A stretch of 64,000 nucleotides of DNA. It comes from Lactarius indigo (Eukaryota > Basidiomycota > Agaricomycetes > Russulales > Russulaceae). Positions 1,423 to 61,321 of this stretch are shown piece after piece. Position numbers and translations under genes: made by a program. Every line of letters starts with the position of its first letter. Position 1 is the stretch's first letter. Where the stretch lies: NCBI GenBank assembly GCA_025766275.1, contig JAFKAC010000086.1:124001-188000 (forward strand), in the 5' to 3' direction. The notes beneath the pieces were generated by a model, which was given only the letters and a program-made list of their open reading frames with translations, had not been told where the DNA came from and made no database searches.

Positions 1423-2662
1423 TGTGGGAAACTCACTATCACTCGACAGTGAGGGGTAAGGCTGGAGACAACAGCAGGCAAGATAGAGACAGAGAATGAT
1501 GAACAGCATGCAGAGATCCAATACTCACAGTGAGACAAAGTACTGTGGTGAGATAATGGGGCAGCTGGAAGCAGCAACAGAGAGATCTTGCAGTAGTGAA
1601 GCAGAGGGGTGTCTGGCACACAGCAGTGAGAGAACTGATGATGGTATTACAGAGGAGAGAACATACCTGGCACACAGCAGTGAGAGAACTGATGTGGACC
1701 AGGAGTGTACAAGCACTACTACTTATACTATACAGGGGAGTGACACTAGTACAAGAGATGTAACGTAGAGTCACAGAATACAAGGTGCATTGTTCTACAT
1801 ACAGGACAAAGGAGTGTATCAAAAGGAGAACAAAGTGCAGAGAAATAAAGAAGGTCCAGAACAAGATGATATCATGATGACATCACAATAAAGATAATGC
1901 TGTAAAGAGAACAAGGATGAAAGTACAATGAGGAGTCTGGAGTAGTCCATATGATGTCATTGTACAGTGATGTCATAGATAAGTAGAATAGTCTGAGATT
2001 GTACAGATCAAATCTAATCTACAGAAGTCCAATTAATCTTATCTAAAGCAGTCCATATCTGCAAGTCCTTCTAGAGCTGCTAAGTGCGCAAGGGTCACTT
2101 ATCAACAGAGAGATTGTTGAGGGCAAAAGGGAGGTGTCTTGGCTCAAAGGAAGTAGTGGTGCACAAGGAGTGGGGCACTTGAAAGAGCTAGGAGGCAAGA
2201 GGGAAGATGTCACAAGTGGACAGTCTAAGGGACTGTCCAATAGATTGTGCTAACTTATATACTACAAGGGGTGGTCTGTGCATAGGTTTAGGGCAGGCTT
2301 AGGGCCTGTCCATGAGTGCTGCACAATACTGTGGATTGGAACATTCCAGAGACAAGTATTAATACTGTCCAATCAGAAAGGGTCTAAACATAGATTGACT
2401 GTGCCACACAGTCAATGATGCCATATTGTGCCATAGTGGCATGATTCCACAGTAACTGTGGAAATCCCATGATTGATACACATGTACCTTCATGTAACTT
2501 GAAAGACAGAGCAATCATGTGATGAGTCACATGATTGTTGAAGAGTGAAGTTCAGACTCCAATTCCAGATTTCCCTTTTTAGGAAGTTGATGACATAAGA
2601 CTGGGCTGGCATGGACTGGTCCTAAGCACCTGAGTCATGACCAGGTTTATAGGTTCATGACA
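1423..2662 (-). repeat. Gypsy-B 3' LTR, interrupted
   Basis: Starts TGTGGGAAACTCAC and ends AGGTTCATGACA on the plus strand, so it is a TG...CA LTR. It shares the central block (GGACAGTC...GACTGTCC hairpin and TATATAAG on the minus strand) with the Gypsy-A LTR but has a different outer end. A solo Copia-1 LTR splits it at 1497-2107. Confidence 0.8.
1497..2107 (-). repeat. Solo Copia-1 LTR (leader intron present)
   Basis: 611 bp, from TGATGAACAGC to TTATCAACA. Flanks GAGAA and GAGAG match at 4 of 5 positions, so the target duplication has one change. Two leader repeat copies are present, both of the GCAGTGAGAGAACTGAT type. Confidence 0.9.
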
Positions 2663-3423: not shown

Positions 3424-4565
3424 TGATGAATAGCACAGACAGATCCAGTACTCACAGTGACAAAGGAGACTGTGGTTGTTGATAAGTAGCCTGTGCGCAC
3501 TTAGCAGCTCTAATGGACTTGTAGATAATGGACTACAGTAGATTAGATTATTCATTTTGATCTGTACAATCTGGACTATGACATCACATGTATATGACAT
3601 CATATGGACTATTCCAGACCTACTATTGTACTACGTTTCTTTGTTCTACTTTTGTTCTTATCTTTATTATGATGTCACTATGATATCATCCTGCTCTAGA
3701 CTCTTCTTGTTCTCATCGCCTTGTTCTCTTTATATCCACTCTTTTGTGTCCTATATAGAACAATGCATCTTGTATTCTGTGACTAGGCATTACTCACCTT
3801 GTAGTACTGTCACTCCCTGTATGAGTATAAGTAGAGTACCATGTATGCTCCTGGTCCACATCAGTTCCTCACTGTTGTGTGCCAGGTATGTCCCCTCTTC
3901 CCCAATGTATTATCAGTTCCTCACTGTTGTGTGCCAGACACCCTCTGCTTTCACTGCAAGACTTCCCCTCTGCTGCTTACCAGTTACACCTTATATCTCA
4001 CCACAGACTCTTTTGCCCTCTGTGAGTATAGGTTCTATCTGTGCTGTTCATCAGTGGTGAGATACTAAATGCAGCTGGTAGGCAGCAGAGGGAACTGTCA
4101 AGCAAGTGAAGCAAAGGTGTTCTGGCACACAAGCAGTGAGAACTGATGTGGACCAGGAGCATACATAGTTCACTACTTATACTGTTTACAGGTGTGACAC
4201 TAGTACAAGGAAGTAACATAGGGTCACATAGTACAAGGGACATTGTTCTACATGTGGACAAAAGGAATGTACAGATGGAGAACAAGGAGCATAAAAATAA
4301 AGAAAGTCCAGACTGAAATGATATCATAATGACATCACAATAAAGATAGAGCTAAAGAAAGAACAAAGGTGTAGTTCAATGACATGTCCAGAGGAGTCCA
4401 CATGATGTCATAGTACAGTGATGTCATAGATAAGTAAATACAAGGTGTCTAAGATTGTACAGATCAATATCTAATCTACATGTCCTGTATATCTAATCTA
4501 AAGCAGTCCATGCTGCAAGTCTGGTCCATATGAGCCACTAAGTGCACAAGGGTCACTTATCAACA
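3424..4565 (-). repeat. Nested solo Copia-1 LTR (intron absent)
   Basis: Own sequence 3424-3476 and 4059-4565. Target duplication GAACT (3419-3423, 4566-4570) lies inside the outer LTR. Only a single leader repeat is present. It is split by a plus-strand copy at 3477. Confidence 0.9.
3477..4053 (+). repeat. Innermost solo Copia-1 LTR (intron present)
   Basis: Runs TGTTGATAAG to TGTTCATCA, 577 bp, with target duplication GTGGT (3472-3476, 4054-4058) inside the 3424-4565 LTR. Carries two copies of the CAGTTCCTCACTGTTGTG repeat around GTATGT. Confidence 0.92.
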
Positions 4566-5125: not shown

Positions 5126-6317
5126 TGATGAACAGCACACAAAGAGATCATACTCACAGAGGCAAAGAGTCTGTGGTGAGATATGATAGGGTGGCTGGAG
5201 GCAGCAACAGGGAGGTCAAGCAGTGTAAAGCAAGATGGTAGTCTGTGTTGATAAGTGACCCTTGCGCACTTAGCGGCTCGTACGGACCAGACTTGCAGCA
5301 TGGACTGCTTTAGATTAGATATACAGGACTTGTAGATTAGATACTGTTTGATCTGTACAATCTGGACTTATCATTGTGTCATACATGACATCACTACACT
5401 TCTATGACATCATAACATCTGGACTCTGCGTTGTATATTGTCTTTGTACTTTCCTTTGTTCCATACTTAGCTTTATCCTTATTATGATGTCACTATGATA
5501 TCATTTGCTTCTGGACTCTCCTTATTCTTTCTTCCCTTATTCTCAGAACGTCCACTCTTTTGTCTGTTTGTAGAACAATACTTCCTTGTACTGCGTGACT
5601 TAGTGTTACATCCCTTGTACAGTGTCACTACCAGAAAGTGTATAAGTAGAGTACCATGTACGCTCCTGGTCCACATCAGTTCTCACTGCTTGTGTGCCAG
5701 GTAAGCCTCTTCTCTCTAATGTAACAACATCAGTTCTCACTGCTTGTGTGCCAGACCCTTTGCTTCAAACTGCAACTCCCTGTCTCACCTCTGCTTCCAG
5801 CGTCCCTGCATATCTCACCACAGTCTCCTTTGTCACTGTGAGTATGCTCTCTGTGTTTGCTGTTCATCAGTCTGGCACACAGCAGAGTGAGAACTGATGT
5901 GGACCAGGGTGTACAGAGTACTCTACTTATACTATACAGAGGTGTGACACTAATACAAGAGTATTAACACAGAGTCACAGAATACAAGGAGTGTTGTTCT
6001 ACATACAGGACAAAAGGAGTGTACCAAAGGAGAACAAGGCAACTAGAACAAAGAAAGTCCAGACAAGGATGATATCATAGTGACATCATAATAGAGATAA
6101 GAGCTAGAAAGGAACAAAGGACAAAGTACAATGAAGTGTCCGAAGTGTTCTACATGATGTCATTGTACATGATGTCATACATGACACAATGATAAGCGCT
6201 AGATTGTACAGATCAAATCTATGTAATCTACAAGTCCAATTAATCTAATCTAAAGCAGTCCATGCTGCAAGTCTGGTCCATACAAGCCGCTAAGTGCATG
6301 TGGGTCACTTATCAACA
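5126..6317 (-). repeat. Nested solo Copia-1 LTR (intron absent)
   Basis: Own sequence 5126-5245 and 5875-6317. Target duplication CAAGA (5121-5125, 6318-6322) inside the 4823-6569 LTR. Single leader repeat. Confidence 0.9.
5246..5869 (+). repeat. Innermost solo Copia-1 LTR (intron present)
   Basis: 624 bp with target duplication GTCTG (5241-5245, 5870-5874), inside the 5126-6317 LTR: four nested levels counting the outer LTR. The intron-like segment starts GTAAGC, and both repeats are of the TTCTCACTGCTTGTG type. Confidence 0.92.
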
Positions 6318-16443: not shown

Positions 16444-17328
16444 TGATGAACAGCACAAGAAGAACCTATACTCACAGAGGGCAAAAGGTCTGTGGTGAGA
16501 TATAGGGTGCAACTGGTAAGCAGCAGAGGGTGAGTCTTGTAGTGAAGCAGAGAGGGTGTCTGGCACACAGCAGTGAGAGAACTGATGATAGTATTACAGA
16601 GGAGAGAACATACCTGGCACACAGCAGTGAGAGAACTGATGTGGACCAGGAGCGTACAAGCACTACTACTTATACTATACAGAGGTGTGACACTAGTACA
16701 AGAGTGGTAATGTAGAGTCACAGAATACAAGGAGCATTGTTCTATATACAGGACATAAGGAGTGTATGAAAAGAGAACAAGGTGACTAGAACAAAGAGAG
16801 TCCAGACAAAGATGATATCATAGTGACATCACAATAAAGATAAGAACTAAAGGAGAGCAAAGGACTGAGTACAATGAAGTGTCCGGAGTGCTCTACATGA
16901 TGTCATAGTACATGATGTCATACATGACGCAATGATCAGCGTGTTGATAAGTGACCCTTGCGCACTTAGCGGCTCACACGGACCGGACTTGCAGCATGGA
17001 CTGCTTTAGATTAGATTAAATGGACATGTAGATTACTTACTTCTGATCTGTACAATCTAGCGCTGATCATTGCGTCATGTATGACATCACTGTACAATAA
17101 CATCGTGTAGACTACTCTGGACTCTTCATTGTACTCCGTCTCTTGTTCTCCTTTTAGCACTATGTTTATTATGATGTCACTATGATATCATTTGGTCTGG
17201 ACTTTGCTTGTTCTTGTACGCCTTGTTCCTTTTACACACACTCCTTTGTCCTGTTGTAGAACAATGCGTCCCTTGTATTCTGTGACACTCTGTTACTCAC
17301 CTTGTAATAGTGTCACCCTCCTGTATAG

Positions 17329-17334
17329 TATAAG
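17329..17334 (+). promoter_or_regulatory. Copia-1 TATA-like box
   Basis: TATAAG. The first copy of the 26-bp leader repeat begins 33 nt downstream at 17362, which is where transcription would be expected to start. The motif is conserved in most solo copies. Confidence 0.6.
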
Positions 17335-17387
17335 TAGTAGACTTGTACGCTCCTGGTCCACATCAGTTCCTCACTGTTGTGTGCCAG

Positions 17388-17439
17388 GTATGTCTCCTCC
17401 TCTCTAATGTAATATCAGTTCCTCACTGTTGTGTGCCAG
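17388..17439 (+). other. Predicted 52-bp leader intron in Copia-1 5' LTR
   Basis: Starts GTATGT, ends GTGTGCCAG, and contains CTCAC as a possible branch site 17-20 nt before the end. Its last 26 bp are identical to the 26 bp just upstream (17362-17387). Removing it by splicing or by collapse of the repeat gives the same product, and seven solo LTRs show that product. The 3' LTR has the same segment at 23121-23172. Confidence 0.6.
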
Positions 17440-17555
17440 ACTTCCACTTTGCTTCACTCTGCTTGACACCCCTGTGCTGCTTCCAGTCACCCTCCATATC
17501 TCACCACAGTACTATCAGTCCACTGTGAGTATAGTTCTTATGTGTCTGTTCATCA

Positions 17556-17567
17556 GGTTATGGGCCC
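17556..17567 (+). promoter_or_regulatory. Copia-1 primer-binding site (initiator tRNA-Met anticodon arm)
   Basis: GGTTATGGGCCC directly after the LTR. Its complement GGGCCCATAACC is the anticodon stem-loop of eukaryotic initiator tRNA-Met (CAT anticodon). Drosophila copia and yeast Ty5 use this internal half-tRNA site. Confidence 0.8.
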
Positions 17568-18332
17568 TGGTGCCCTAGCCACTCCACTTGGCTGGTCACT
17601 GTCTTCCTAGGAGGACACACCAGGCTAAGGTCTGTCTGGGGCCTTACCAGCCTTGCCCAAGGCAGAGAGCAGTGGGGCGCCACTTGTCTCTGCTAAGGAA
17701 CCTCCTGTACATGTACTGCCCAGTAGTCCTACTTTCACCCCTACTGTTTTCCTAGCCCCTGCGCTATGCGCAAGGAGACTGGGTCTGGTAGCCCTTCAAT
17801 CAATATCCAGGTGTGCATGGCCCACTGGGCTGTGTATTGTGGAGCTTAGCGCCAGCTGTCTCTGGTGCTCCACACTGGGCACAGGATCTCCTCACCATGG
17901 GAGTGTAAAACCTGGTTCAGACTCTGGGGGGTGTTCACCACTATGGTGTTCTGCAACCAGATACCTGCCTTGTAGCGGCAATGGGAAAGGATTCAGTAAA
18001 GCCACTTGTGGCGATGAGGCAACCAACAGGCCGAGGAGGCTGAGGTAGACAGCCTTGGGCTCTGAAAGCATTCCCTTCACTTTCCCCCTGACGCAAACCA
18101 TTTGAGCTGTGTCTTAGACACATCCTGGCTGGCAGCTAGCTCATGGTATGGCAAAGGGATTCCTTCAACCTGGGCCTAGCCCTTGTATCACTGGCATACT
18201 ATCAGGAGGCAGGACGCGTTAGCGTTCTGGCCTTACAGAATCATAGACAGGAGTGGTACCCCCTCTATCTTTGTCTTGCAAACTATGAAGCACTGTCGCT
18301 GACTGCTCCTCGGCGATAGATAAATCATCCCA
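17568..18332 (+). other. Copia-1 leader
   Basis: About 765 nt between PBS and the gag-pol start. It contains a 131-codon frame (17653-18048) with no recognisable domain, probably fortuitous, or part of an unspliced leader. No other feature seen. Confidence 0.5.
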
Positions 18333-21300
18333 ATGTCTGGCTCTTCATCTACCCCTGCTACTGGTGCTGGTGCTCCTCCCAGCCCCACCGGTGGCTCTGC
18401 AGGAGGCTCACTCCCTCCTCCCTCTGGATCCACTGCTTCTGGGCGACTTGCAAATGCCCACACCACAACCTTTGGCATGCCATCTGGCATCCACCTAACA
18501 CAGTTTGACGGCACTGGTTGGAACGAATGGTCTGGCACCATTGAGGCCATCCTCACGCTGCACGAAGCTGAGGATGTGTTCCTCCTGGACACACCCCCAT
18601 CTGGCATCACTACAGATGAGTGGGATTCGATCCAGCGACGCTCCAAGGCGTACCTCCACCTCTACCTTAAACCAGACGTCTACTCGCTTGTGGCAGATAA
18701 TACTGCCTATCCCATGTTCAAACACAAATGGGCCAAGCTTCAGGATGTGTATGGCGGTGCTTCGGGCAGCACCACCATCTTTAATTTGTGGATTCAGATA
18801 ACTCAAGCCCGCCTCGACGACTCCGCACCCATGGCCTCACAACTGGCCAAGCTCAATGAGCTTAGGGTTGCCCTTTCCAACGCACAGATGGGTGTCTCTG
18901 ACACTCAGTTCTGTCTCATTCTCCTACACGCACTGCCGCCCTCCTACGAGGTGTTGGCCTCTACTATCCTCACCAGTGGGGCCCCCTCCACACTCAAGCA
19001 CGCTGAAATAATTGCGCGCATAGTGTCGGAAGAGGCTCGCCGCTCCGGGCCCTCTGGCTCCTCCCTCAACAAGGTGGCCCCTGTCAAGTCGACAGGCAAG
19101 AAGGGCAAAAAGGACCACTCTGGTCTGACTTGCCACTATTGCAACAAAAAGGGCCATATCAAGCCTGATTGCAGGAGGAAGAAGAAGGACGAGGCTGACG
19201 CAAAGGAGAAGGAGAAAGCAGGCAACAAGGCTGCCAATAGTCATATTCTTGTACCTACCACCGCCTCCATTAAGGAGGTCGAAGAGCCCGCCATAGACTG
19301 GGCCTCTGAATCAATTGGTGTTGCCTTGTATGCTGCCTCGCGTGTGCGTTGGATGATGGATAGTGGTGCTACACACCACATCACCCCACATCGGTCTGAC
19401 TTCAAGGACTACACCCCAACCAAAGGCACTGTACGCCTGGGTGATAAGTCCACTATAGACCAAGTGGGTGTTGGGTCTGTCGTCTTTACTACGAGCCAGG
19501 GTATTTCTATCACCCTCAGCAATGTGCTACACCTACCACAGGTGAAGACGCGCTTCTTGTCGATGCGCGCCCTAGCACAAAAGGGTGCTGAAATTGCCTT
19601 TGACAGTGGCTCATTTAAAATATCTGTCAACCAAAAGTGTGTGGCCAAAGGCTACCTTGAGGACAACCTATACTGGTTGGACGCAGCCAGCGTCGGCCTC
19701 AACGCCCACACAAAAACAAGTGCTGCCACACTTGACATCTGGCATCAACGCATGGGACACATCTCCTCTGCGGCGCTGAAGGCGCATGGTCCCTCTGCCA
19801 CTACCGGCATGGACATAGATAGCTCCACCACGGCCCACACAGTCTGCCGTGGGTGCGAAATGGGCAAGTCGACTCGCCAACCCTTTTCTGCGTCCTCCAA
19901 TAAAAGGACAACTCGTCAATTTGAGATTGTACACAGTGACCTCGCCGGTCCTATGCAGACTCAGTCCCTGCAAGGCTCGACCTACACAGCCACCTTCATA
20001 GATGACCACACTAAGTTCACTGTGGTCCACTTCCTTAAGTCGAAGGATCAGTTTGCTAAGTCGCTGCAGATGTATTTGGCCTGGGGTGAAACCCAGTCTG
20101 GCCATAAATTGCGCGCTCTGCACTCTGACCGCGGTGGCGAGTACATGTCGAGTGTCACGCAGGACATTCTTAAGCAGAAAGGGATAGAGCATCACCTCAC
20201 GATGCCGGGTTCACCACAGTCCAACGGGAAAGCCGAGCGGTTTAACCGCACCATTATGGATAAGGCAATGTCCATGCTTCACACAGCTGGCATGTCTAAA
20301 GGCTTCTGGGAGCATGCAGTGTGCGCAGCTGTGCACATCTATAATCGCTCTCCAGTCCGTGGGCTTAAGTGGCGCACTCCCTATGAGCTCTGGCACTCTG
20401 GCAAAGTGCCCGATGTCTCACATCTTCGCATCTTTGGATGCAAGGGGTACATGCACGTACCCGCTGATAAGCGTCGCAAATTGGATGCGAAGGCCATTGA
20501 GGTCACGCTTATCAGGTTTGAGCCCGAATCTAAGGGCTATAAGCTCTGGGACCACTCAACCCGCTTCGTCCGAGTGTCCAGGGATGTGACATTCGACGAG
20601 AGTAGCTTCCCGTCCCTTCAGGGTGTTGAGACACACCCCACACCTTCACCACCAGTCATGCCTAGCACAACAGTGACTGCCGTGCCTCACCCGCCGGCGT
20701 TACCACCAATGCGAGCCCCCTCCCCTGCACACTCCAGTAGTAGTGAGGAGGAGGATGTTGAAAAGCTCTTAGACCCCCCACAAGTCCAACCACGCCCCAC
20801 CACTCCACCACCTGCTCTGCCAGCTCCGCCCACCACACCAAAGCGTGAGCATGCCACTCCCACTTCACCCCCACCACATCCTAGTGCAACGCGCATTATG
20901 CGCCATGTCCCTCCTCCCTCACCAGAAATGCCTGGGGGTTTTGAGGATCGTGCACAGTGTAGTCAGCTGTTGCGCGAAATGGACAATGCACCAAGGCGCA
21001 CTGCTTGTGTCCCTGTGCCTAATCCGCGTTACTTCAATGCGGACAATGCGGCATGGCGCGGCAGGCGTTTGGGGTATGCGGAGTTATTGGCTGCTGCCTT
21101 TATAGGCCGAGACCCTGCAACCTATGCAGAGGCCATGCGGTCTGCAGCTGCAGATGAGTGGACTAAGGCGTGTCAGTATGAAATGGACGCCCTAGCTAAA
21201 AATGGGACTTGGGAGTTAGTGGATCTCCCGCCTAATCGTAAGGCAGTAAAATCCAAATGGGTCTTTAAGCTCAAAGCGGATGGCCGCTACAGAGCTCACT

Positions 21301-22655
21301 TGGTGGCTAAGGGATTCATGCAGATCCCTGGCGTAGATTTTGATGAAACCTTCTCTCCCGTCGCACGATTTGAGTCGCTACGTTTACTTCTGGCGTTGGC
21401 CGCGCTGGAGGACTGGCACATCCATCAGATGGATGTCAAGTCTGCTTTTCTCAATGGCGTGCTTGACGAGGAGATATACATGGAGCAGCCACAAGGTTTC
21501 ACTGTCACTGGCTCTGAGACGAAGGTGTGTCGCCTGGTTAAGGCGATCTATGGTCTCAAACAGGCCTCCCGCGCATGAAACTTGCAATTCCATGGAGTGC
21601 TCACTGCACTCGGCTTTAAGCGGACGTTTGCTGATGCTGGCATATATGTGATGCCTCAACGGGAGGGGTATGATCCACTCTTTGTTATTGTCTACGTTGA
21701 CGACATCACTATACTGGGTCCCTCGTTGAGTGGAGTCAAGCGTCTTAAGTCAGACTTGTCTGAACGCTATGAGATGACAGATCTCGGGGAGATAGAGTCC
21801 TATCTTGGTATGCGCATTGTGCGCAACCGCTCCCTTAGACGCATTGAAATAGATCAGTCTGGCTACATCAAGGATGTCCTTGAACGCTTTGGCATGTCTG
21901 ATGCCACACCACACAACACACCCTTGCCCGCTGGTGCTGACGAGCACCTGGTTAAATATACGTCGCAGGCAACTGCCTCAGATATCTCTCACTACCAATC
22001 TCTTATTGGGAGTCTGCTTTACGTGCAGATTGGCACTAGGCCAGATATCTCCTTCGCTGTGTCACGTTTGGCGCAGTACGCAGCGAACCCTTCACCACAA
22101 CATCTGCGACTTGTGCAGTATGTCCTGTCCTACTTAGTGGGAACTATGGATATGCGTATTGTCTATGATGGCGCCAATGGCGATGGCCTTCACAGCTACA
22201 CTGATTCCAGTCTGGCTGATCAGACTGACGACCGCCACTCCACCTCTGGTTATGTGTTCCTACTAGCTAACGGTGCAATAAGCTGGTCTTCGTGCAAGCA
22301 AAAGACTGTTGCCCAAAACACAACGGAAGCGGAATACATGGCCATGACCGATGCGGCTAACCAGGCTGCATGGTATCAGAGCTTCCTCACGGAACTCGGG
22401 TACGAGGTCGATGACCCCATCCCACTTCATGGTGACAATAAGGGTGCCATTGACTTGGCCTTGAACCCTGTCACTGGGAGACGGTCTAAGCACATTGCCA
22501 TACGGCATCATGTCATTCGGGAGTACATCGAAAAGGGGACCATCACCCTCATTAGAACTCCTACTGTGGATATGGTTGCGGACGGCTTTACAAAGTCACT
22601 ACCGCGTGTCCTGCTGCAGAAGCACAACGATGACATGGGACTTGTGTGTACTTAG
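18333..22655 (+). pseudogene. gag-pol: Copia-1 Gag-Pol polyprotein with one internal stop
   Basis: A 1,440-codon frame interrupted only by TGA at 21576-21578, where Copia RTs have the Trp of the QASRxW motif (a TGG-to-TGA change). Order: Ser/Pro-rich N-terminus, Gag with CCHC knuckle CHYCNKKGHIKPDC (residues 267-280), protease DSGATHH (Asp343), integrase zinc finger and DDE triad (Asp536, Asp599, Glu635; D-35-E spacing), Pro-rich linker, RT with YVDD (about codon 1121) and RNase H (TDSSLADQT, TEAEYMA). As is, translation stops before the RT active site and gives a 1,081-residue Gag-PR-IN-partial RT product. Start chosen at the first ATG ahead of the conserved Gag. Confidence 0.96.
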
Positions 22656-22664
22656 ATTGTAGAT

Positions 22665-22674
22665 CACGGGGAGA
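22665..22674 (+). promoter_or_regulatory. Copia-1 polypurine tract
   Basis: CACGGGGAGA immediately before the 3' LTR, ten bases after the pol stop. Confidence 0.75.
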
Positions 22675-23288
22675 TGTTGAGAAGTGACCCTTGCGCACTT
22701 AGCGGCTCACATGGACCGGACTTGCAGCATGGACTGCTTTAGATTAGATTAAATGGACATGTAGATTACTTACTTCTGATCTGTACAATCTAGCGCTGAT
22801 CATTGCGTCATGTATGACATCACTGTACAATAACATCGTGTAGACTACTCTGGACTCTTCATTGTACTCCATCTCTTGTTCTCCTTTTAGCACTATGTTT
22901 ATTATGATGTCACTATGATATCATTTGGTCTGGACTTTGCTTGTTCTTGTACGCCTTGTTCCTTTTACACACACTCCTTTGTCCTGTTGTAGAACAATGC
23001 GTCCCTTGTATTCTGTGACACTCTGTTACTCACCTTGTAATAGTGTCACCCTCCTGTATAGTATAAGTAGTAGACTTGTACGCTCCTGGTCCACATCAGT
23101 TCCTCACTGTTGTGTGCCAGGTATGTCTCCTCCTCTCTAGTGTAATATCAGTTCCTCACTGTTGTGTGCCAGACTTCCACTTTGCTTCACTCTGCTTGAC
23201 ACCCCTGTGCTGCTTCCAGTCACCCTCCATATCTCACCACAGTACTATCAGTCCACTGTGAGTATAGTTCTTATGTGTCTGTTCATCA
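22675..23288 (+). repeat. Copia-1 3' LTR
   Basis: 614 bp, differing from the 5' LTR at four sites, including base 7 (T to G) and three transitions. Ends TGTTCATCA against the CAGCG target duplication. Confidence 0.96.
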
Positions 23289-26735: not shown

Positions 26736-27362
26736 TGTTGATAAGTGACCCTTGCACACTTAGTGGCTCGTACAGACCGGACTTGCAGCATGGACTGCTT
26801 TAGATTAGATATACAGGACTTGTAGATTAGATACTGTTTGATCTGTACAATCTGGACTTATCATTGCATCACATATGACATCACTGTACCTCTATGACAT
26901 CATACATCTGGACTCTGCGTTGTATAACGCCTTTGTACTTTCCTTTGTTCCGTACTTAGCTTTATCCTTATTATGATGTCACTATGATATCATTTAGCTC
27001 TGGACTCTTCTTGTTCTCCATACCCTTGTTCTCAAAGCATCCACTCTTTTGTCCGTTTGTAGAACAATACCTTCTTGTATTCTGTGACTAGTGTTACTAG
27101 CGTTGTACTATTGTCACTGCCTGTAGGAGTATAAGTAGAGTACCATGTACGCTCCTGATCCACATCAGTTCTCACTGCTTGTGTGCAAGGTAAGCCTCTT
27201 GTCTCTCAATGTATAACATCAGTTCTCACTGCTTGTGTGCCAGACTCCATCTGCTTTACTCTGCAAGATCTCCCTGTCTCACCTCTGCTTCCAGCACTCC
27301 AGTATATCTCACCACAGTCTACTAGCCACTGTGAGTATACCTTTAGTGTCTGCTGTTCATCA
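26736..27362 (+). repeat. Nested solo Copia-1 LTR (intron present)
   Basis: 627 bp with target duplication ATCAG (26731-26735, 27363-27367), inserted at the start of the leader repeat of the outer LTR. The intron-like segment starts GTAAGC. Confidence 0.92.
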
Positions 27363-27537
27363 ATCAGTTTCTCACTGTTGTGTGCCAGGTATGTTCCCTC
27401 TTCTCCAATGTAACATCAGTTTCTCACTGTTGTGTGCCAGACACTTCTCTGCTTCACTTGCTAAGACCTCCCCTCTGCTGCTATCCAGTTGCTATCTGTA
27501 TCTCACCACAGTCTCCCTTGTCACTGTGAGTACAGGT

Positions 27538-28152
27538 TGATGAACAGCACACAGAAGTAGCATACTCACAGTGGACTAAGAGGACTGTGGTGAGATAGGC
27601 TGGGTGGCTGGGAAGCAGCAACAGGAGTCTCTAGCAAAGTAAAGCAAGAGTGTCTGGCACACAAACAGTGAGAACTGATATTATACATTGGAGGGAAGGG
27701 AGCTTACCTGGCACACAAACAGTGAGAACTGATGTGGACCAGGAGCGTTCATGCTACTCTACTTATACACTTTCTGGGAGTGACACTATACAAGGGATGT
27801 AACACAAGTCACGTACTACAAGACAGTTATTGTTCTACAAACGGACAAAGGAGTGGACGTTCTGAGAACAAGGGCAGAAAGAACAAGGAGAGTCCAGAAG
27901 TAAATGATATCATAGTGACATCATAATAAGGATAGACCTAAAGGAGAACAAAGAAAGATACAAGAACGCGTAGTACAATGAAGAGTCTGGATATGTCCAT
28001 ATGATGTCATTGTACATGATGTCATAGATAAAGAAGTCCTAGATTGTACAGATCAAATCTAATCTAAAGCGGTCCTAATTAATCTACAGCAGTCCATATC
28101 TGTAAGTCCGGTCCGTATGAGCCGCTAAGTGCGCAAGGGTCACTTATCAACA
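27538..28152 (-). repeat. Nested solo Copia-1 LTR (intron present)
   Basis: 615 bp with target duplication CAGGT (27533-27537, 28153-28157). Both leader repeats carry the AAACAGTGAGAACTGAT variant. Confidence 0.92.
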
Positions 28153-31722: not shown

Positions 31723-32300
31723 TGATGAACAGCACACATGAAACTATACTCACAGTGGACTAGGGGACTGTGGTGAGATATAGAGGGTGGCTGGAAGCTG
31801 AGGGTAACAGGGAGTCTTGCAGAGTAAAGCAAGGGGAGTCTGGCACACAACAGTGAGGAACTGATATTATATTAGAGAGGAGGGGACATACCTGGCACAC
31901 AACAGTGAGGAACTGATGTGGACCAGGAGTGTACATGGTACTCTACTTATACTCATACAGGGAGTGACAGTACTACAAGGTGAGTAACGCCCAGTCACAG
32001 AATACAAGACGCATTGTTCTATACAGGACACAAAGGAGTGGATATAAAGAGAACAAGGTGATGAGAACAAGAAGAGTCCAGAGCAGGATGATATCATAGT
32101 GACATCATAATAAAGATAAGAACAAAAGTAGAACAAAGGAATGTAGTACAATAGTAAGTCCGGAATAGTCCATATGATGTCATATACATGTGATGTCATG
32201 GTCCAGATTGTACAGATCAAAATAAATAATCTAATCTACTGTAGTCTGTTATCTACAAGTCCATTTGAGCCACTAAGTGTGCACAGGCTACTTATCAATA
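31723..32300 (-). repeat. Solo Copia-1 LTR (intron present)
   Basis: 578 bp, TGATGAACAGC to TTATCAATA, with target duplication GCTTT (31718-31722, 32301-32305). Both leader repeats are of the AACAGTGAGGAACTGAT type. Confidence 0.92.
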
Positions 32301-32488
32301 GCTTTGACATGTGGTGCAGCCTTTGATGTAGGCTTCTACATCTTTTTGCATGTTTGGCCACCAGAAGTCACATTGTACCAGTTTGAGTGTATTTGTGATT
32401 CCTGGGTGTCTGGCACTTGGTGTATCATGGAAAAAGGTAATCACCCCCTGTTTAAGATTGTTGTTTCCCACAACAATGAGGGCATTGC

Positions 32489-33045
32489 TGATGAACAGCA
32501 CAGATAGGAAGCATACTCACAGTGGCAAAGGTGACTGTGGTGAGATATGCAGAGAGTGCTTGAAGCAGCAACAGGAGTTGTCTTTAGAAGTGGAGCAGAG
32601 GGTGTCTGGCACACAACAGTGAGGAACTGATGTGGACCAGGAGTGTACATGGTACTCTACTTATACTCCTACAGAGAGTGACACTAATATAATGTAGGTA
32701 ACACTAGTGACAAAGTACAAGGGTGGTATTGTTCTACAAATGGACAAGGGAGTGGATGCTTTGAGAACAAGGCAAGGAGAACAAGGAGAGTCCAGAGCCA
32801 AATGATATCATAGTGACATCATAATAAAGATAAGAACAAAAGACAGAACAAAGGGACATAGTACAATGAAAAGTCTGGAAGGAGTCCATATGATGTCATT
32901 GTACATGATGTCATAAATAAGCTAGGAAGTCCAAGATTGTACAGATCATATAATCTAATCTACAAGTTCAATATATCTTATCTAAAGCAGTCCATATCTG
33001 CAAGTCCTTTTGAGCTGCTAAGTGTGCAAGGGTCACTTATCAACA
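32489..33045 (-). repeat. Solo Copia-1 LTR (intron absent)
   Basis: 557 bp with target duplication ATTGC (32484-32488, 33046-33050). Single leader repeat. Confidence 0.92.
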
Positions 33046-52080: not shown

Positions 52081-53141
52081 TGTTACACTCCACCAGTGTT
52101 AGTCTGACTTGGACTTGTGAAGGCATAGGCAACTTAGCAAAGTAAGGTGAATGGGAACCTCAGTGTCAACCCAACACAAGCTGAATGGGGGCTCAACAGC
52201 ACACAACTGCAGCAAAAGATGAGGAAGCTCCAGATGAACAGCACAGATAGGGAGCATACTCACAGTGGCAAAGGTGACTGTGGTGAGATATGCAGAGAGT
52301 GCTTGAAGCAGCAACAGGGATTGTCAGGCAGTGAAGCAGAGGGTGTCTGGCACACAAGCAGTGAGAACTGATGTGGACCAGGAGTGTACATGGTACTCTA
52401 CTTATACTCCTACAGAGAGTGACAATAATACAATGCAAGTAACACTAGTCACAAAGTACAAGGATGGTGTTGTTCTACAAATGGACAAAGGAGTGGACAC
52501 TTTGAGAACAAGGAAAGAAGAACAAGGAGAGTCTAGAGCTAAATGATATCATAGTGACATCATAATAAAGATAAGAACAAAAGAAAGAACAAAGGCGTAG
52601 TACAATGACAGTTCTAGAGGAGTCTGCATGATGTCATGGTACAGTGATGTCATAGATAAGTAAATACAAGGCATCCAAGATTGTAAAGATCAATATCTAA
52701 TCTACATGTCCTGTATATCTAATCTAAAGCAGTCCATGCTGCAAGTCCAGTCTGTACGAGCTGCTAAGTGTGCAAGGGTCACTTATCAACAGCTCCACCC
52801 TTGGTAAGTTGAAGCAGAAGTACTCTTAGTTCAAGACTAAGGCAGACAGGAGACAAATCAGATGGTGGATTGAAGAAGACCAAGATGGGGATTCTTGGTC
52901 TTCCATGACTACTACTTATACAGATATGTGCAGGCTTTAAAGTGCCACTTGAACAATAGGTAACCAATAGCATAACTAGCTCAAACTCTAGTACAGCTAT
53001 CCTTGGAATGAGTCATACACAAGTCACAATCACATGTAAACTACTATGCTGACTGATGTGATGTAAGAGTCCATGACTAATACTGAGTTGGACTGTAGTC
53101 ATAACTGGTCATGAGTCATACCAAGAAGTCATACCATAACA
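52081..53141 (-). repeat. G-family 3' LTR (element G2), split by a Copia-1 LTR
   Basis: Own sequence 52081-52231 and 52797-53141, TGTTACACTCC...CATAACA, about 496 bp. Same family as the element E 5' LTR at 60495. Followed by polypurine tract GAAAAGGGGGTAA (minus, 53142-53154), so it is a 3' LTR with internal sequence to its right, not a solo LTR. Confidence 0.8.
52232..52791 (-). repeat. Solo Copia-1 LTR (intron absent)
   Basis: 560 bp, first base changed (AGATGAACAGC), ending TTATCAACA. Target duplication GCTCC (52227-52231, 52792-52796). Single leader repeat. Confidence 0.92.
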
Positions 53142-56895: not shown

Positions 56896-59222
56896 GTGAC
56901 TTTTAATACCTGTCAAGATTCATGGTTGCCAGTCTTGCCTGTTGCTTTATTTGTCCTTTCCACAAAGGTTATGTCATCTGCCACTTTTCACTTGCTTCTC
57001 TTCCCTTGCCTGACCATTCAGGTCACCTCCAAATTGCAGAACGCACTCTGCTGCTGTATGGACAGACTATGGTCAAGTGTCCGTTATGGGTGAAAAATGT
57101 TACTGAGTGGTTGTGGCGCTTCTATCCTCTTTGGGTGAGGGACTCTGTTGTTTTTCCACTTCTGCTGCTGATATACAAGCAGGCCAGCATTCACACCGCT
57201 GCCAGTCTTTCTTGTTCGGCCATCAGTTGTGAGGCTTACAAATTGTTCTCTGAGGTTAAGGAATGGGCTGTGCCATATGCCATTGTTGAATGGCTACAGC
57301 TATTCCCCAAAGTTGTAGAGGGTGTCCATGACTGGCTGGTGTTGCATTCTGCCATTATATCAAATGCACAGGCATGTGTTCTCAACATTTGGCTTCTTGT
57401 GGTGGCCACGAGTGGAAACCTTCCTGATGTGTATGATCTCACCAACCAGGAGCTCAGGGACTACTACCAGACCATGTTGATAAGTGACCCACGCACACTT
57501 AGTGGCTTGTATGGACCAGACTTGCAGCATGGACTGCTTTAGATTAGATTAATTGGACTTGTAGATTACATAGATTTGATCTGTACAATCTAGCGCTTAT
57601 CATTGTGTCATGTATGACATCACTGTACTTCTATGACATCATACTTCCGGACTTTGTGTTGTACTCAACACTTTTGTACTTTGCTTTGTTCTATACTTAT
57701 TATGATGTCAGTATGATATCATTTGGTTCTGGACTCTTCTTTTTCTTCCTCTCCTTGTTCTCAAAGTGTCCACTCCTTTGTCCCTTTGTAGAACAATACT
57801 ACCTTTGTCTTTTGTGACTAGTGTTACTAGCGTTGTACTATTGTCACTCTCTGTAGGAGTATAAGTAGAGTACCATGTACACTCCTGGTCCACATCAGTT
57901 CTCACTGCTTGTGTGCCAGACTACCATCTTGCTCTACATTGCTTGACTTCCCTGTTGCTGCCTCCAGCCACCCTATCATATCTCACCACAGACTCTTTGC
58001 CTCTGTGAGTATGATCTCCTTGTGTGCTGTTCATCAGACCACAGTGATTATGTGCAAAGAATATGTTTGGCACCTTGGTCGACTTGAACTCAGCTGTCTA
58101 GAGGCTTCCTGGGAACAGCTGTTAGCATGTGGATCAGCTGTGACACAATCTGGGACTCTGCTGAGGGCTGAGGAGACTGTTGTCCTTGACCAAGGTAAGC
58201 GCTCAATGCTTCATGTTTCTGGTCCATGTTAATCTGTGTGTGAAAGTAGTTAGTTTGCCTCCCTCTAGTTCTGGAAGTGGTGAGCTGTCAGGTAACTGGT
58301 AGAATGCGCTGGGGGACCTGGCTTGTTGTAGTGCTGTATCGTGTAAAGCAGAACATAAATTTTCATTGAGTGGGTTCCATCAGCTGAAGGAAAATGTCCT
58401 ATCTGCAGCAGCTGATCTGCATGAATGAGGCAAAATGGTCTCAGGGGAAGCTACTTAAGGCCAGTGAATCCAGCCACAGGTGGTAGATTCCTTTCCTCAA
58501 TGTATCATGTCTGGTCACAATAATCAGGAGGTCGCTAATACTTTGCATGGCCATGCAGTTGAGGTGTTTGAGCTTGCACAGAAGAGTTTTCTCATGCTGA
58601 GTGAAACTTGGCCTAAGCGGCCCCTCTGTAGCCAGACAGTGGCAACTTGGCTGTTTTTGCTCTATCACTCCTGGGTGCATCTTCTTTTGATTTGTTTGCT
58701 TGTTGGGGCTGAGAGAGCAATAGAAGAACCTTGAGGTGCTGGCTGAATTTGCCAATGTTTCTGGAGTTGGCAAATGCCCACTTGCAATATATGCAGAAAT
58801 TGAGACAGAGGCTTGACCCTACGAGTTAGACTGGATTCAGAAGTTCCCAAGAGTCATCGCCAGAGACAAGGATTGCTTGATCCAATTTTATGCCATCCTC
58901 AACTGATCCTATTTTTCTGCCTTTGTCATCAGTCCTCCTCTGCCTGGTGAGTGATTTACTGCTTTTGAGTTCACAGCTGCCAATTTTGAATACCACTGGG
59001 CGACAGGGCTGATTAGCCTTGAAGACTTCAACTGGTACCAGGCCAAATTGAACTGGATCAAGCTTGATTTCGTCCTAGAACAGGAGCACCTGGCTAGGAT
59101 GACTTCATCAAGTTCTGCCTTGAATGGGTCAGCCAACATGCAGTCCAGTGCTGTCAGGGATATTGTTGCAATGAGAAGGAGAGTAGACTCGGTTCCTCTG
59201 GCCCATGAAGTTGAGCCAAACT
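56896..59222 (+). pseudogene. Second decayed plus-strand gene, unknown, split by Copia-1 LTR
   Basis: A long open stretch from 56922 to 57474 resumes in frame at 58042 when the LTR and its GACCA duplication are removed, ending near a GTAAGC donor at about 58194. It has Trp/Leu-rich, helical protein (VTEWLWRFYPLW, NIWLLVVATSGNLPDVYDL). Shorter frames follow at 58480-58734 and about 58965-59222 (FEYHWATGLISLEDFNWYQA). No known domain. It may be one gene with introns or two. Confidence 0.45.
57475..58036 (+). repeat. Solo Copia-1 LTR (intron absent)
   Basis: 562 bp, TGTTGATAAG...TGTTCATCA, with target duplication GACCA (57470-57474, 58037-58041). Single leader repeat. Confidence 0.93.
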
Positions 59223-59477
59223 TGTTATTTGTGGCTAGAGCGTCGTTGTTTCACCTATTCTGTGACTGTACATTGCCCTAAGTGGAGTTACCTTATTTAG
59301 ATATGCTTAGTCAGGTTGATATATCCTGCAGAGGACGGAAAATATCCCTTTAGTCTTATATCCTCCTCTGCAGGTGAGTAACTATCTTTACTTTGATCAA
59401 TATAGTCTTATATCCTCCTCTGCAGTCCCCTTGTGTCCTCTGTGACTCAAGGGCCCTCTATAGGTCGCATTCTAACA
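59223..59477 (+). repeat. Copia-2 LTR, apparently solo
   Basis: 255 bp, TGTTATTTGTGG...ATTCTAACA, near-identical to the Copia-2 LTR at 61066 in opposite orientation. The left flank (AAACT) and right flank (GGTAC) do not match. The right flank is D-family LTR and the left flank is the decayed gene, so a rearrangement has occurred here. Confidence 0.85.
59374..59425 (+). other. Predicted 52-bp leader intron in Copia-2 LTR
   Basis: Starts GTGAGT and ends CTCTGCAG. Its last 23 bp (59403-59425) repeat the 23 bp just upstream (59351-59373). The first repeat starts 31 nt after a TATATCC box at 59320. Same length and layout as in Copia-1. Confidence 0.6.
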
Positions 59478-61065: not shown

Positions 61066-61321
61066 TGTTAGAAAGCGACCTATAGAGGGCCCTTGAGTCA
61101 CAGAGGACACAAGGGGACTGCAGAGGAGGATATAAGACTATATTGATCAAAGTAAAGATAGTTACTCACCTGCAGAGGAGGATATAAGACTAAAGGGATA
61201 TTTTCCGTCCTCTGCAGGATATATCAACCTGACTAAGCATATCTAAATAAGGTAACTCCACTTAGGGCAATGTACAGTCACAGAATAGGTGAAAACAGCA
61301 ATGCTTTAACCACAAATAACA
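61066..61321 (-). repeat. Copia-2 3' LTR
   Basis: 256 bp; minus strand TGTTATTTGTGG...TTTCTAACA. The 23-bp direct repeat lies at 61170-61192 and 61118-61140 with GTGAGT between (predicted intron 61118-61169). Confidence 0.93.

What the first reader, a model, noticed from the sequence alone, without database searches (positions are those of the whole stretch)
59351..59425. LTR leader intron whose 3' end is a copy of exon 1, in two unrelated Copia families
In Copia-2 a 23-bp block (59351-59373) is followed by GTGAGT and repeated at 59403-59425 ending CAG: a 52-bp GT...AG unit. Copia-1 has the same plan (26-bp block 17362-17387, GTATGT, repeat to 17439, also 52 bp). In both, the first block begins where transcription should start (31 and 33 nt after the TATA box), so the repeat equals predicted exon 1. 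Hypothesis: the leader is spliced in genomic RNA, and minus-strand strong-stop DNA made on spliced RNA can pair with the second copy in the 3' LTR, which regenerates the intron each cycle. I know of no described LTR element with this design.
Basis: partly seen in the sequence, partly recalled or inferred. Interest (0 to 1): 0.9.

Follow-up and report, generated by a model that had tools for sequence, protein, structure and literature searches.

The report
Self-rebuilding introns in fungal retrotransposon LTRs
Several families of jumping genes in this genome carry an intron in their leader that is apparently cut out of the RNA and rebuilt when the RNA is copied back into DNA, because the end of the intron holds a copy of the joined exons as a landing site.

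Summary
In detail: 11 LTR leaders in the window (9 Copia-1-like, 2 Copia-2) have block1-GT...block2-AG. It reaches beyond the window. Copia-1 block1 is followed by GTR in 1019 places of the 90-Mb genome and by A (intronless) in 276. Two more families share the plan: C3, a Ty3/Gypsy chromovirus, and C4, another Copia.
Two results go past resemblance. (1) Copia-1 block1 varies between LTRs, indels included, yet block2 equals it in 43 of 45: concerted evolution. (2) C4 has two leader introns, and the repeat ending intron 2 is exon1 joined to exon2 without the intervening GTAAGT...AG intron, in 13 of 13 LTRs read; exon-2 variants appear in both copies. That copy can hardly come from anything but spliced RNA that was reverse transcribed.
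Start sites and splicing are inferred from DNA, not measured. Seven searches of open papers aimed at the design showed none like it.

The parts
59320..59325 (+). TATA-like box of the Copia-2 LTR (TATATC), 31 nt before block 1
   Evidence: sequence
59351..59373 (+). Copia-2 predicted exon 1 (block 1)
59374..59425 (+). Copia-2 predicted leader intron GTGAGT...CAG, 52 nt; its last 23 nt (59403-59425) are block 2, the proposed landing site
   Evidence: of 31 distinct LTRs 31 end in AG and 28 have block1 = block2
61066..61294 (-). Second Copia-2 LTR region, downstream of a Copia pol frame (63998-61356); block1 61192-61170, intron 61169-61118, block2 61140-61118
16942..23288 (+). Complete Copia-1 element with 5-bp target-site duplication CAGCG; both LTRs carry the leader intron; pol frame interrupted by one stop (left as is)
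17329..17337 (+). TATA box TATAAGTAG of the Copia-1 5' LTR, 33 nt before block 1
17362..17387 (+). Copia-1 predicted exon 1 (block 1), 5' LTR
17388..17439 (+). Copia-1 predicted leader intron, 52 nt, ending in block 2 (17414-17439)
17556..17575 (+). Putative primer-binding site GGTTATGGGCCC... directly after the LTR end; half-tRNA type as in Drosophila copia (recalled, not tested)
23095..23172 (+). Copia-1 3' LTR: block1 23095-23120, block2 23147-23172
3860..3937 (+). Copia-1-like leader, block1 + intron with block2
5673..5754 (+). Copia-1-like leader, variant block ACATCAGTTCTCACTGCTTGTGTGCCAG, same in both copies
1613..1694 (-). Copia-1-like leader, variant block CATCAGTTCTCTCACTGCTGTGTGCCAG, same in both copies
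16560..16641 (-). Copia-1-like leader, variant block, same in both copies
27654..27733 (-). Copia-1-like leader, variant block ATCAGTTCTCACTGTTTGTGTGCCAG, same in both copies
31840..31917 (-). Copia-1-like leader
27363..27440 (+). Copia-1-like leader of an older LTR interrupted by another LTR (26736-27362), target-site duplication ATCAG
57533..58037 (+). Intronless Copia-1-like LTR: block 1 ends at 57919 and runs straight into the sequence that follows block 2 elsewhere
52230..52733 (-). Intronless Copia-1-like LTR
32488..32991 (-). Intronless Copia-1-like LTR

Best explanation
These are LTR retrotransposons with a spliceosomal intron in the R region of the LTR. Transcription starts at block 1 and the leader is spliced. 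The RNA that serves for reverse transcription has exon(s) joined to the downstream leader. Minus-strand strong-stop DNA made on it therefore ends in a copy of the joined exons. In the unspliced 3' LTR of the RNA the only continuous match is the second copy at the 3' end of the intron, so the strong-stop DNA lands there, and extension copies intron, first exon(s) and U3. Each such cycle keeps the intron in DNA and overwrites block 2 with block 1. The last exon before the intron must end in AG because its copy is the 3' splice site. Shown by sequence: the repeats, concerted change (Copia-1, C4), the fused exon copy (C4), the variable joint (Copia-1), intron loss. Inferred: start site, splicing, strand transfer, and that the 3' LTR intron escapes splicing. 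Likely benefit (inference): intron-dependent mRNA accumulation, as known in basidiomycetes; the host being a basidiomycete is itself an inference.
For: C4: exon1-intron1 (62 nt in L071, GTAAGT...TTATAG)-exon2-intron2, with intron2 ending in exon1+exon2 fused; only one cut of the first copy gives the fused copy, and it is exactly GT...AG. 13 of 13 LTRs read (two of them identical) have it, with exon-2 variants CC/AC/CA the same in both copies. Copia-1: 43 of 45 LTRs have block1 = block2 across 7 shared block variants; summed within-LTR edit distance 1 by the script (4 after counting a 3-nt loss it trimmed away) against a minimum of 60 in 2000 permutations. On a tree of flanking sequence 12 block changes are needed among the 45 double-block rows, 10 without the two rows with a private change. 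In 70 LTR pairs with near-identical U3 the last 4 nt before block 2 differ at 0.18 per site, U3 at 0.017, the U3/block1 joint 0 of 420. Same plan in Copia-2, C3 (chromovirus) and C4, block start 31-35 nt after the TATA box. Places with U3-block1 joined straight to the downstream leader in all four families. Introns are needed for mRNA accumulation of most tested genes in Cryptococcus neoformans (PMC3744415, abstract) and reported necessary for expression in Armillaria and Ganoderma (PMC4935854, PMC7017817, listing).
Against: No RNA data: start sites and splicing are not measured. The variable joint is seen in Copia-1 only; in Copia-2, C3 and C4 it is nearly constant. Exon 2 of Copia-1 is also fairly variable (0.064 per site). 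Copia-2 block1 does not vary (31 of 31 identical) and C3's does not either (11 of 11), so concerted change is untestable there. Whether block 2 lies upstream of the poly(A) site is not shown: C3 has NATAAA 35 nt after block 2, but true AATAAA in only 3 of 11. Why the 3' LTR copy of the same intron is not spliced is unexplained. How often the spliced route is used cannot be read from DNA. LTR trees may be distorted by recombination.
Confidence: 0.8

Rival explanations
1. Splicing and reverse transcription of spliced RNA made the second copy, but only rarely. Most cycles use unspliced RNA with ordinary block1-to-block1 transfer, and rare spliced cycles suffice to keep the copies alike.
For: Any conversion rate above the mutation rate would give the identity seen. 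The variable joint is clear in only one family.
Against: If spliced transfer were rare, the joint should not differ about tenfold more often than U3 between near-identical Copia-1 LTRs, nor the U3/block1 joint be constant (pairs not independent).
Confidence: 0.13
2. Tandem duplication of an AGGT-containing stretch created an intron by chance, and ordinary recombination or slippage keeps the two copies alike. Spliced RNA plays no part in replication.
For: Tandem duplication is a known route to new introns (recalled). Deletion between the repeats gives the same product as splicing, so intronless LTRs prove nothing by themselves.
Against: C4's second copy lacks the intron between its exons, with one possible cut, at GT and AG. 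None of 45 double-block Copia-1 leaders has a further unit: after block2 comes AC, AT or AA, never GT. The same plan at the same place in four families of two superfamilies.
Confidence: 0.04
3. The repeat is an RNA or DNA signal (start-site element, dimerisation or packaging site) needed twice, and GT/AG are incidental.
For: Position near the start site.
Against: The block sequences differ between families; GT...AG, the AG end and the position are what they share, apart from an 11-mer common to C3 and C4. It does not explain the fused exons.
Confidence: 0.02

Closest known systems
Ty1/copia and Ty3/gypsy chromovirus LTR retrotransposons
   Same: RVT_2 pol (Copia-1, Copia-2, C4) or integrase with chromodomain (C3); TG...CA LTRs and 5-bp target-site duplications checked in one Copia-1 and two C4 insertions
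   Different: As usually described, the RNA template of reverse transcription carries an unspliced leader identical to the 3' R region (general knowledge); here the leader appears spliced and a second exon copy serves for transfer
Retroviruses with a splice donor close to the RNA 5' end that silences the 5' poly(A) site (HIV-1, foamy viruses)
   Same: Splice donor in the leader with a role in RNA processing (PMC12789967, passages)
   Different: Their packaged genome is the unspliced RNA (same passages); no exon copy at an intron's 3' end is known to me
Split-intron retroviral vectors (Ismail et al. 2000)
   Same: A splice donor put into the 3' LTR is copied to the 5' LTR by reverse transcription, so that transcripts are spliced (PMC3182074, passages; the 2000 paper itself was not read)
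   Different: Engineered for one round; splicing removes the packaging signal, so nothing is perpetuated
Asymmetric LTRs of HIV-1 proviruses
   Same: 5' and 3' LTR of one insertion can differ in structure (PMC9278108, abstract), like the C4 element at G000:C2:375-382 kb
   Different: Commonly major 3' deletions there; here exactly the two introns are missing from the 3' LTR

Membership tests
Ty1/Copia (Copia-1, Copia-2, C4) | RVT_2-type reverse transcriptase | tested here: met
   PF07727 hits E 4.7e-50, 1.1e-71 and 1.1e-17
Ty1/Copia (Copia-1) | integrase upstream of reverse transcriptase, LTRs with target-site duplication | tested here: met
   rve at 531-631, RVT_2 at 960-1083 in one frame; TSD CAGCG
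Ty3/Gypsy chromovirus (C3) | integrase followed by a chromodomain | tested here: met
   SH3_Tf2-1, Integrase_p58_C and Chromo hits in one stretch before a 3' LTR; C3 reverse transcriptase was not fetched
Spliceosomal intron | GT...AG ends, donor like GTRNGY | tested here: met
   Donors GTATGT, GTAAGC, GTATGC, GTGAGT, GTGCGT, GTAAGT and GTATGC, all with AG ends; the GTRNGY and branch-site consensus are recalled
Spliceosomal intron | removed from RNA | tested here: inconclusive
   No RNA data; the fused exon copy of C4 implies removal of intron 1
LTR retrotransposon replication by the standard scheme | R at both RNA ends identical, strong-stop pairs with the start of R | tested here: inconclusive
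   Concerted blocks and the variable inner joint of Copia-1 speak for pairing with block 2; not measured

The most novel reading that the evidence does not exclude
An intron that survives passage through its own spliced RNA. At least four retrotransposon families of two superfamilies use a copy of the joined leader exons, kept at the intron's 3' end, as the regular acceptor for strong-stop DNA, so introns are cut out and rebuilt every cycle and the exon copy is rewritten each time. C4 shows that this works for two introns at once.
Probability: 0.75. Interest if true: 0.93.

Novelty: new variant of a known kind. Interest (0 to 1): 0.9.

Why it matters
Passage of spliced RNA through reverse transcription is taken to erase introns; that is how retroposition is recognised. 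Here the same passage appears to keep them. It would be a new step in LTR-element replication, would explain how a parasite of intron-dependent fungi can have introns in the region it must copy end to end, and offers a DNA-only signature (TATA+30 exon copied at the end of a GT...AG intron) that can be searched in any genome. It also leaves a readable record of spliced RNA as the template.

Tried and rejected
A start-site claim from 27363, where a leader begins exactly at ATCAG after an LTR end, was dropped: a later LTR (26736-27362) sits in an older leader with target-site duplication ATCAG. Intronless LTRs as proof of splicing were dropped: deletion between the direct repeats gives the same product, also in C4. 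A fifth family was sought in the 355,565 bases then held (loci overlap one another and the window); none found. In that scan 35 distinct repeats had a TATA-like box upstream; 24 were GT...AG, all of the known families; the other 11 were 4 Copia-1 fragments, 2 C4 exon-1 repeats and 5 without the plan. In a second scan, 38 of 375 distinct TATA-like sites had a repeat of 12 nt or more starting 27-41 nt on: 36 of the known families, 2 others without GT/AG at the repeat (its TATA pattern misses Copia-2). More divergent Copia-2 LTRs: the search returned the same near-identical set. Naming the host was not possible; that it is a fungus, probably a basidiomycete, is inference from genome size, intron lengths and element types. 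Other fungal genomes could not be searched.

Parsing limits: 62 Copia-1 promoters gave 45 double, 15 single, 2 other (both interrupted or truncated); one of the 15 'single' is a double leader cut by an insertion, so 14 are intronless. One search reports 44 of 45 identical because it trimmed a 3-nt loss in the block1 of the L032 minus-strand LTR; I count 43 of 45. For the tree 2 of the 60 leaders, both single, were dropped for lack of flank. The mislabelled row was in the tree; without it the intron state still changes 8 times, and 7 times in a tree without the three long-branched rows.

Full report
What was checked. A scan of the whole window for an exact repeat after GT that ends in AG gave 11 leaders, 9 Copia-1-like and 2 Copia-2, with period 52 or 54. 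The window has 12 direct repeats of at least 20 nt with period 38-110; 6 are GT...AG on the + strand and 5 on the - strand; 20 Markov surrogates had no such repeats.

The elements. The window is G000:C277:124001-188000 of a 90.3-Mb genome. Copia-1 has a complete copy at 16942-23288, target-site duplication CAGCG, both LTRs with the intron. Its first pol frame has copia-type gag, integrase and RVT_2. Copia-2 pol is at 63998-61356, minus strand, 35% identical to Copia-1 in RT/RNase H. The Copia-2 LTR region did not hit Copia-1 LTRs in a BLAST of the window.

Concerted evolution in Copia-1. From window and loci I parsed 62 promoters: 45 with two blocks, 15 with one (one of these a double cut by an insertion), 2 other. 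Most loci were fetched by similarity to the intron-bearing Copia-1 LTR or by its promoter. The donor is GT in 45 of 45 and the acceptor CCAG in 45 of 45. Block1 has 7 variants other than two private mutants, differing by substitutions and indels, and block2 follows in 43 of 45; the two exceptions (L040, L032) have a private change in block1. Shuffling block2 among LTRs gave a summed distance of at least 60 in 2000 permutations, against 1 observed by the script (4 after counting the L032 loss). On a tree of the flanking sequence of 58 LTRs, block type changes at least 12 times among the 45 double-block rows, 10 times without the two private rows; intron state changes at least 8 times, 7 in a tree without three long-branched rows. 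So block changes reach both copies again and again. Genome-wide, U3-block1 is followed by GTR in 1019 places and by A, that is intronless, in 276 (exact pattern, so lower bounds).

The joint. Among 70 pairs of double-block LTRs with near-identical U3 the differences per site were: U3 0.017, U3/block1 joint 0 of 420, block1 0.008, spacer 0.031, last four bases before block2 0.18, block2 0.004, exon 2 0.064 (pairs are not independent). In the standard scheme an untidy strong-stop end would mark the U3/R joint (inference from general knowledge). Here the U3/R joint is tidy and the inner joint is not, as expected if the strong-stop end lands on block2. Copia-2, C3 and C4 do not show this, their joint being nearly constant.

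Copia-2. In 31 distinct LTRs the block1 is always the same; 28 have an identical block2 and 3 a single change in block2; AG in 31 of 31. Nothing can be said there about concerted change.

A third family, C3. Found in L079; 40 copies were scored of 420 candidates. A TATATAAACC box stands 35 nt before a 27-nt block, and a 66- or 67-nt GTGCGT...CAG unit ends in the same block. In the 11 LTRs read (two look identical), 11 of 11 have identical blocks. LTR pairs lie about 7.24 kb apart, and the stretch before one 3' LTR encodes integrase parts with a chromodomain: a Ty3/Gypsy chromovirus.

A fourth family, C4, and the strongest result. L071 holds TATATAAG, 34 nt later exon 1, a GTAAGT...TTATAG intron, exon 2 ending in TAG, then GTATGC... 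whose 3' end reads exon1+exon2 fused. Only one way of cutting the first copy gives the fused copy: removal of 62 nt from GTAAGT to TTATAG. In 13 of 13 LTRs read (two identical) the structure holds, and where exon 2 reads CCTAG, ACTAG or CATAG, the fused copy reads the same. The fused junction occurs 72 times in the genome in exact form, at least 3 of them in intronless LTRs. C4 pol is Copia, 66% identical to Copia-1 over the RT end and RNase H. A copy in which an intron has been removed at its splice sites, embedded in DNA and kept in step with its exons, means that spliced RNA was reverse transcribed into the LTR, repeatedly.

Intron loss. Five C4 LTRs have U3 directly followed by exon1+exon2+exon3. 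L117 and L118 are the two LTRs of one insertion (target-site duplication GGCCC), both intronless. At G000:C2:375-382 kb one insertion (target-site duplication TTTAT) has a 5' LTR with both introns and a 3' LTR without, the compared 184 bases otherwise differing at one. Places of the intronless form, counted by pattern and not read, also occur in Copia-2 (26 at up to one mismatch) and C3 (38). Loss is expected if strong-stop DNA lands on the first exon copy, but deletion between the direct repeats gives the same product, so loss does not by itself prove splicing.

Mechanism. Shown: repeats, position after TATA, GT/AG, concerted change, fused exons. Inferred: start at block1, splicing of the 5' leader in the template RNA, an unspliced 3' LTR, landing on block2. 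A functional constraint follows and is met in all four families: the exon before the last intron ends in AG (CCAG, GCAG, TCAG, TAG), since its copy must act as the 3' splice site, whereas C4 exon 1, which is not last, ends in AGT. The model also needs block2 upstream of the poly(A) site. In C3, NATAAA stands 35 nt after block2 in 11 of 11, but it is AATAAA in only 3, so this is a hint.

Why have it. Introns are needed for mRNA accumulation of most tested genes in Cryptococcus neoformans (PMC3744415, abstract) and reported necessary for expression in Armillaria and Ganoderma (PMC4935854, PMC7017817, listing). In HIV-1 and foamy viruses U1 binding to a leader donor silences the 5' poly(A) site (PMC12789967, passages). 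Either could favour a leader intron. The host is taken for a fungus, probably a basidiomycete, by inference only.

Literature. Seven searches of the open PMC library aimed at the design, seen as listings, showed no LTR element of this kind; three more looked for side points. Subscription papers are mostly absent, so the claim is limited. Checked by passages and not of this kind: PMC5014426, PMC2864245. The closest engineered case is the split-intron vector (PMC3182074, passages).

Verdict. RNA evidence is missing.

Noticed in passing
L079:619-645 and L071 exon 2 (2236-2251, minus strand): The C3 exon 1 (Gypsy) and the C4 exon 2 (Copia) share the 11-mer AACTTGTCCTC, and C1 and C3 spacers share TCTCCAATGTWA, which hints at exchange of leader pieces between families.
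   Followed up: no
G000:C2 375.0-382.3 kb (L120, L109, L121, L115): One C4 insertion with matching target-site duplication has an intron-bearing 5' LTR and an intronless 3' LTR, which the standard scheme does not produce.
   Followed up: partly
17525-17530: A second donor-like GTGAGT stands about 25 nt before the primer-binding site in Copia-1 U5 and recurs in related LTRs; its use would remove the primer site from a messenger RNA.
   Followed up: no
G000:C2:793198/793452 and G000:C280:160614/160868: Two intronless Copia-2 leaders in inverted orientation at the same 254-nt distance occur at two places, as if one inverted-pair unit had been copied.
   Followed up: no
Copia-2 LTRs, 4-5 nt before block 1: A dinucleotide just upstream of block 1 reads CC, GG or GC in otherwise near-identical LTRs.
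   Followed up: no
26736-27362: A Copia-1-like LTR has inserted into the leader exon of another one with target-site duplication ATCAG.
   Followed up: yes
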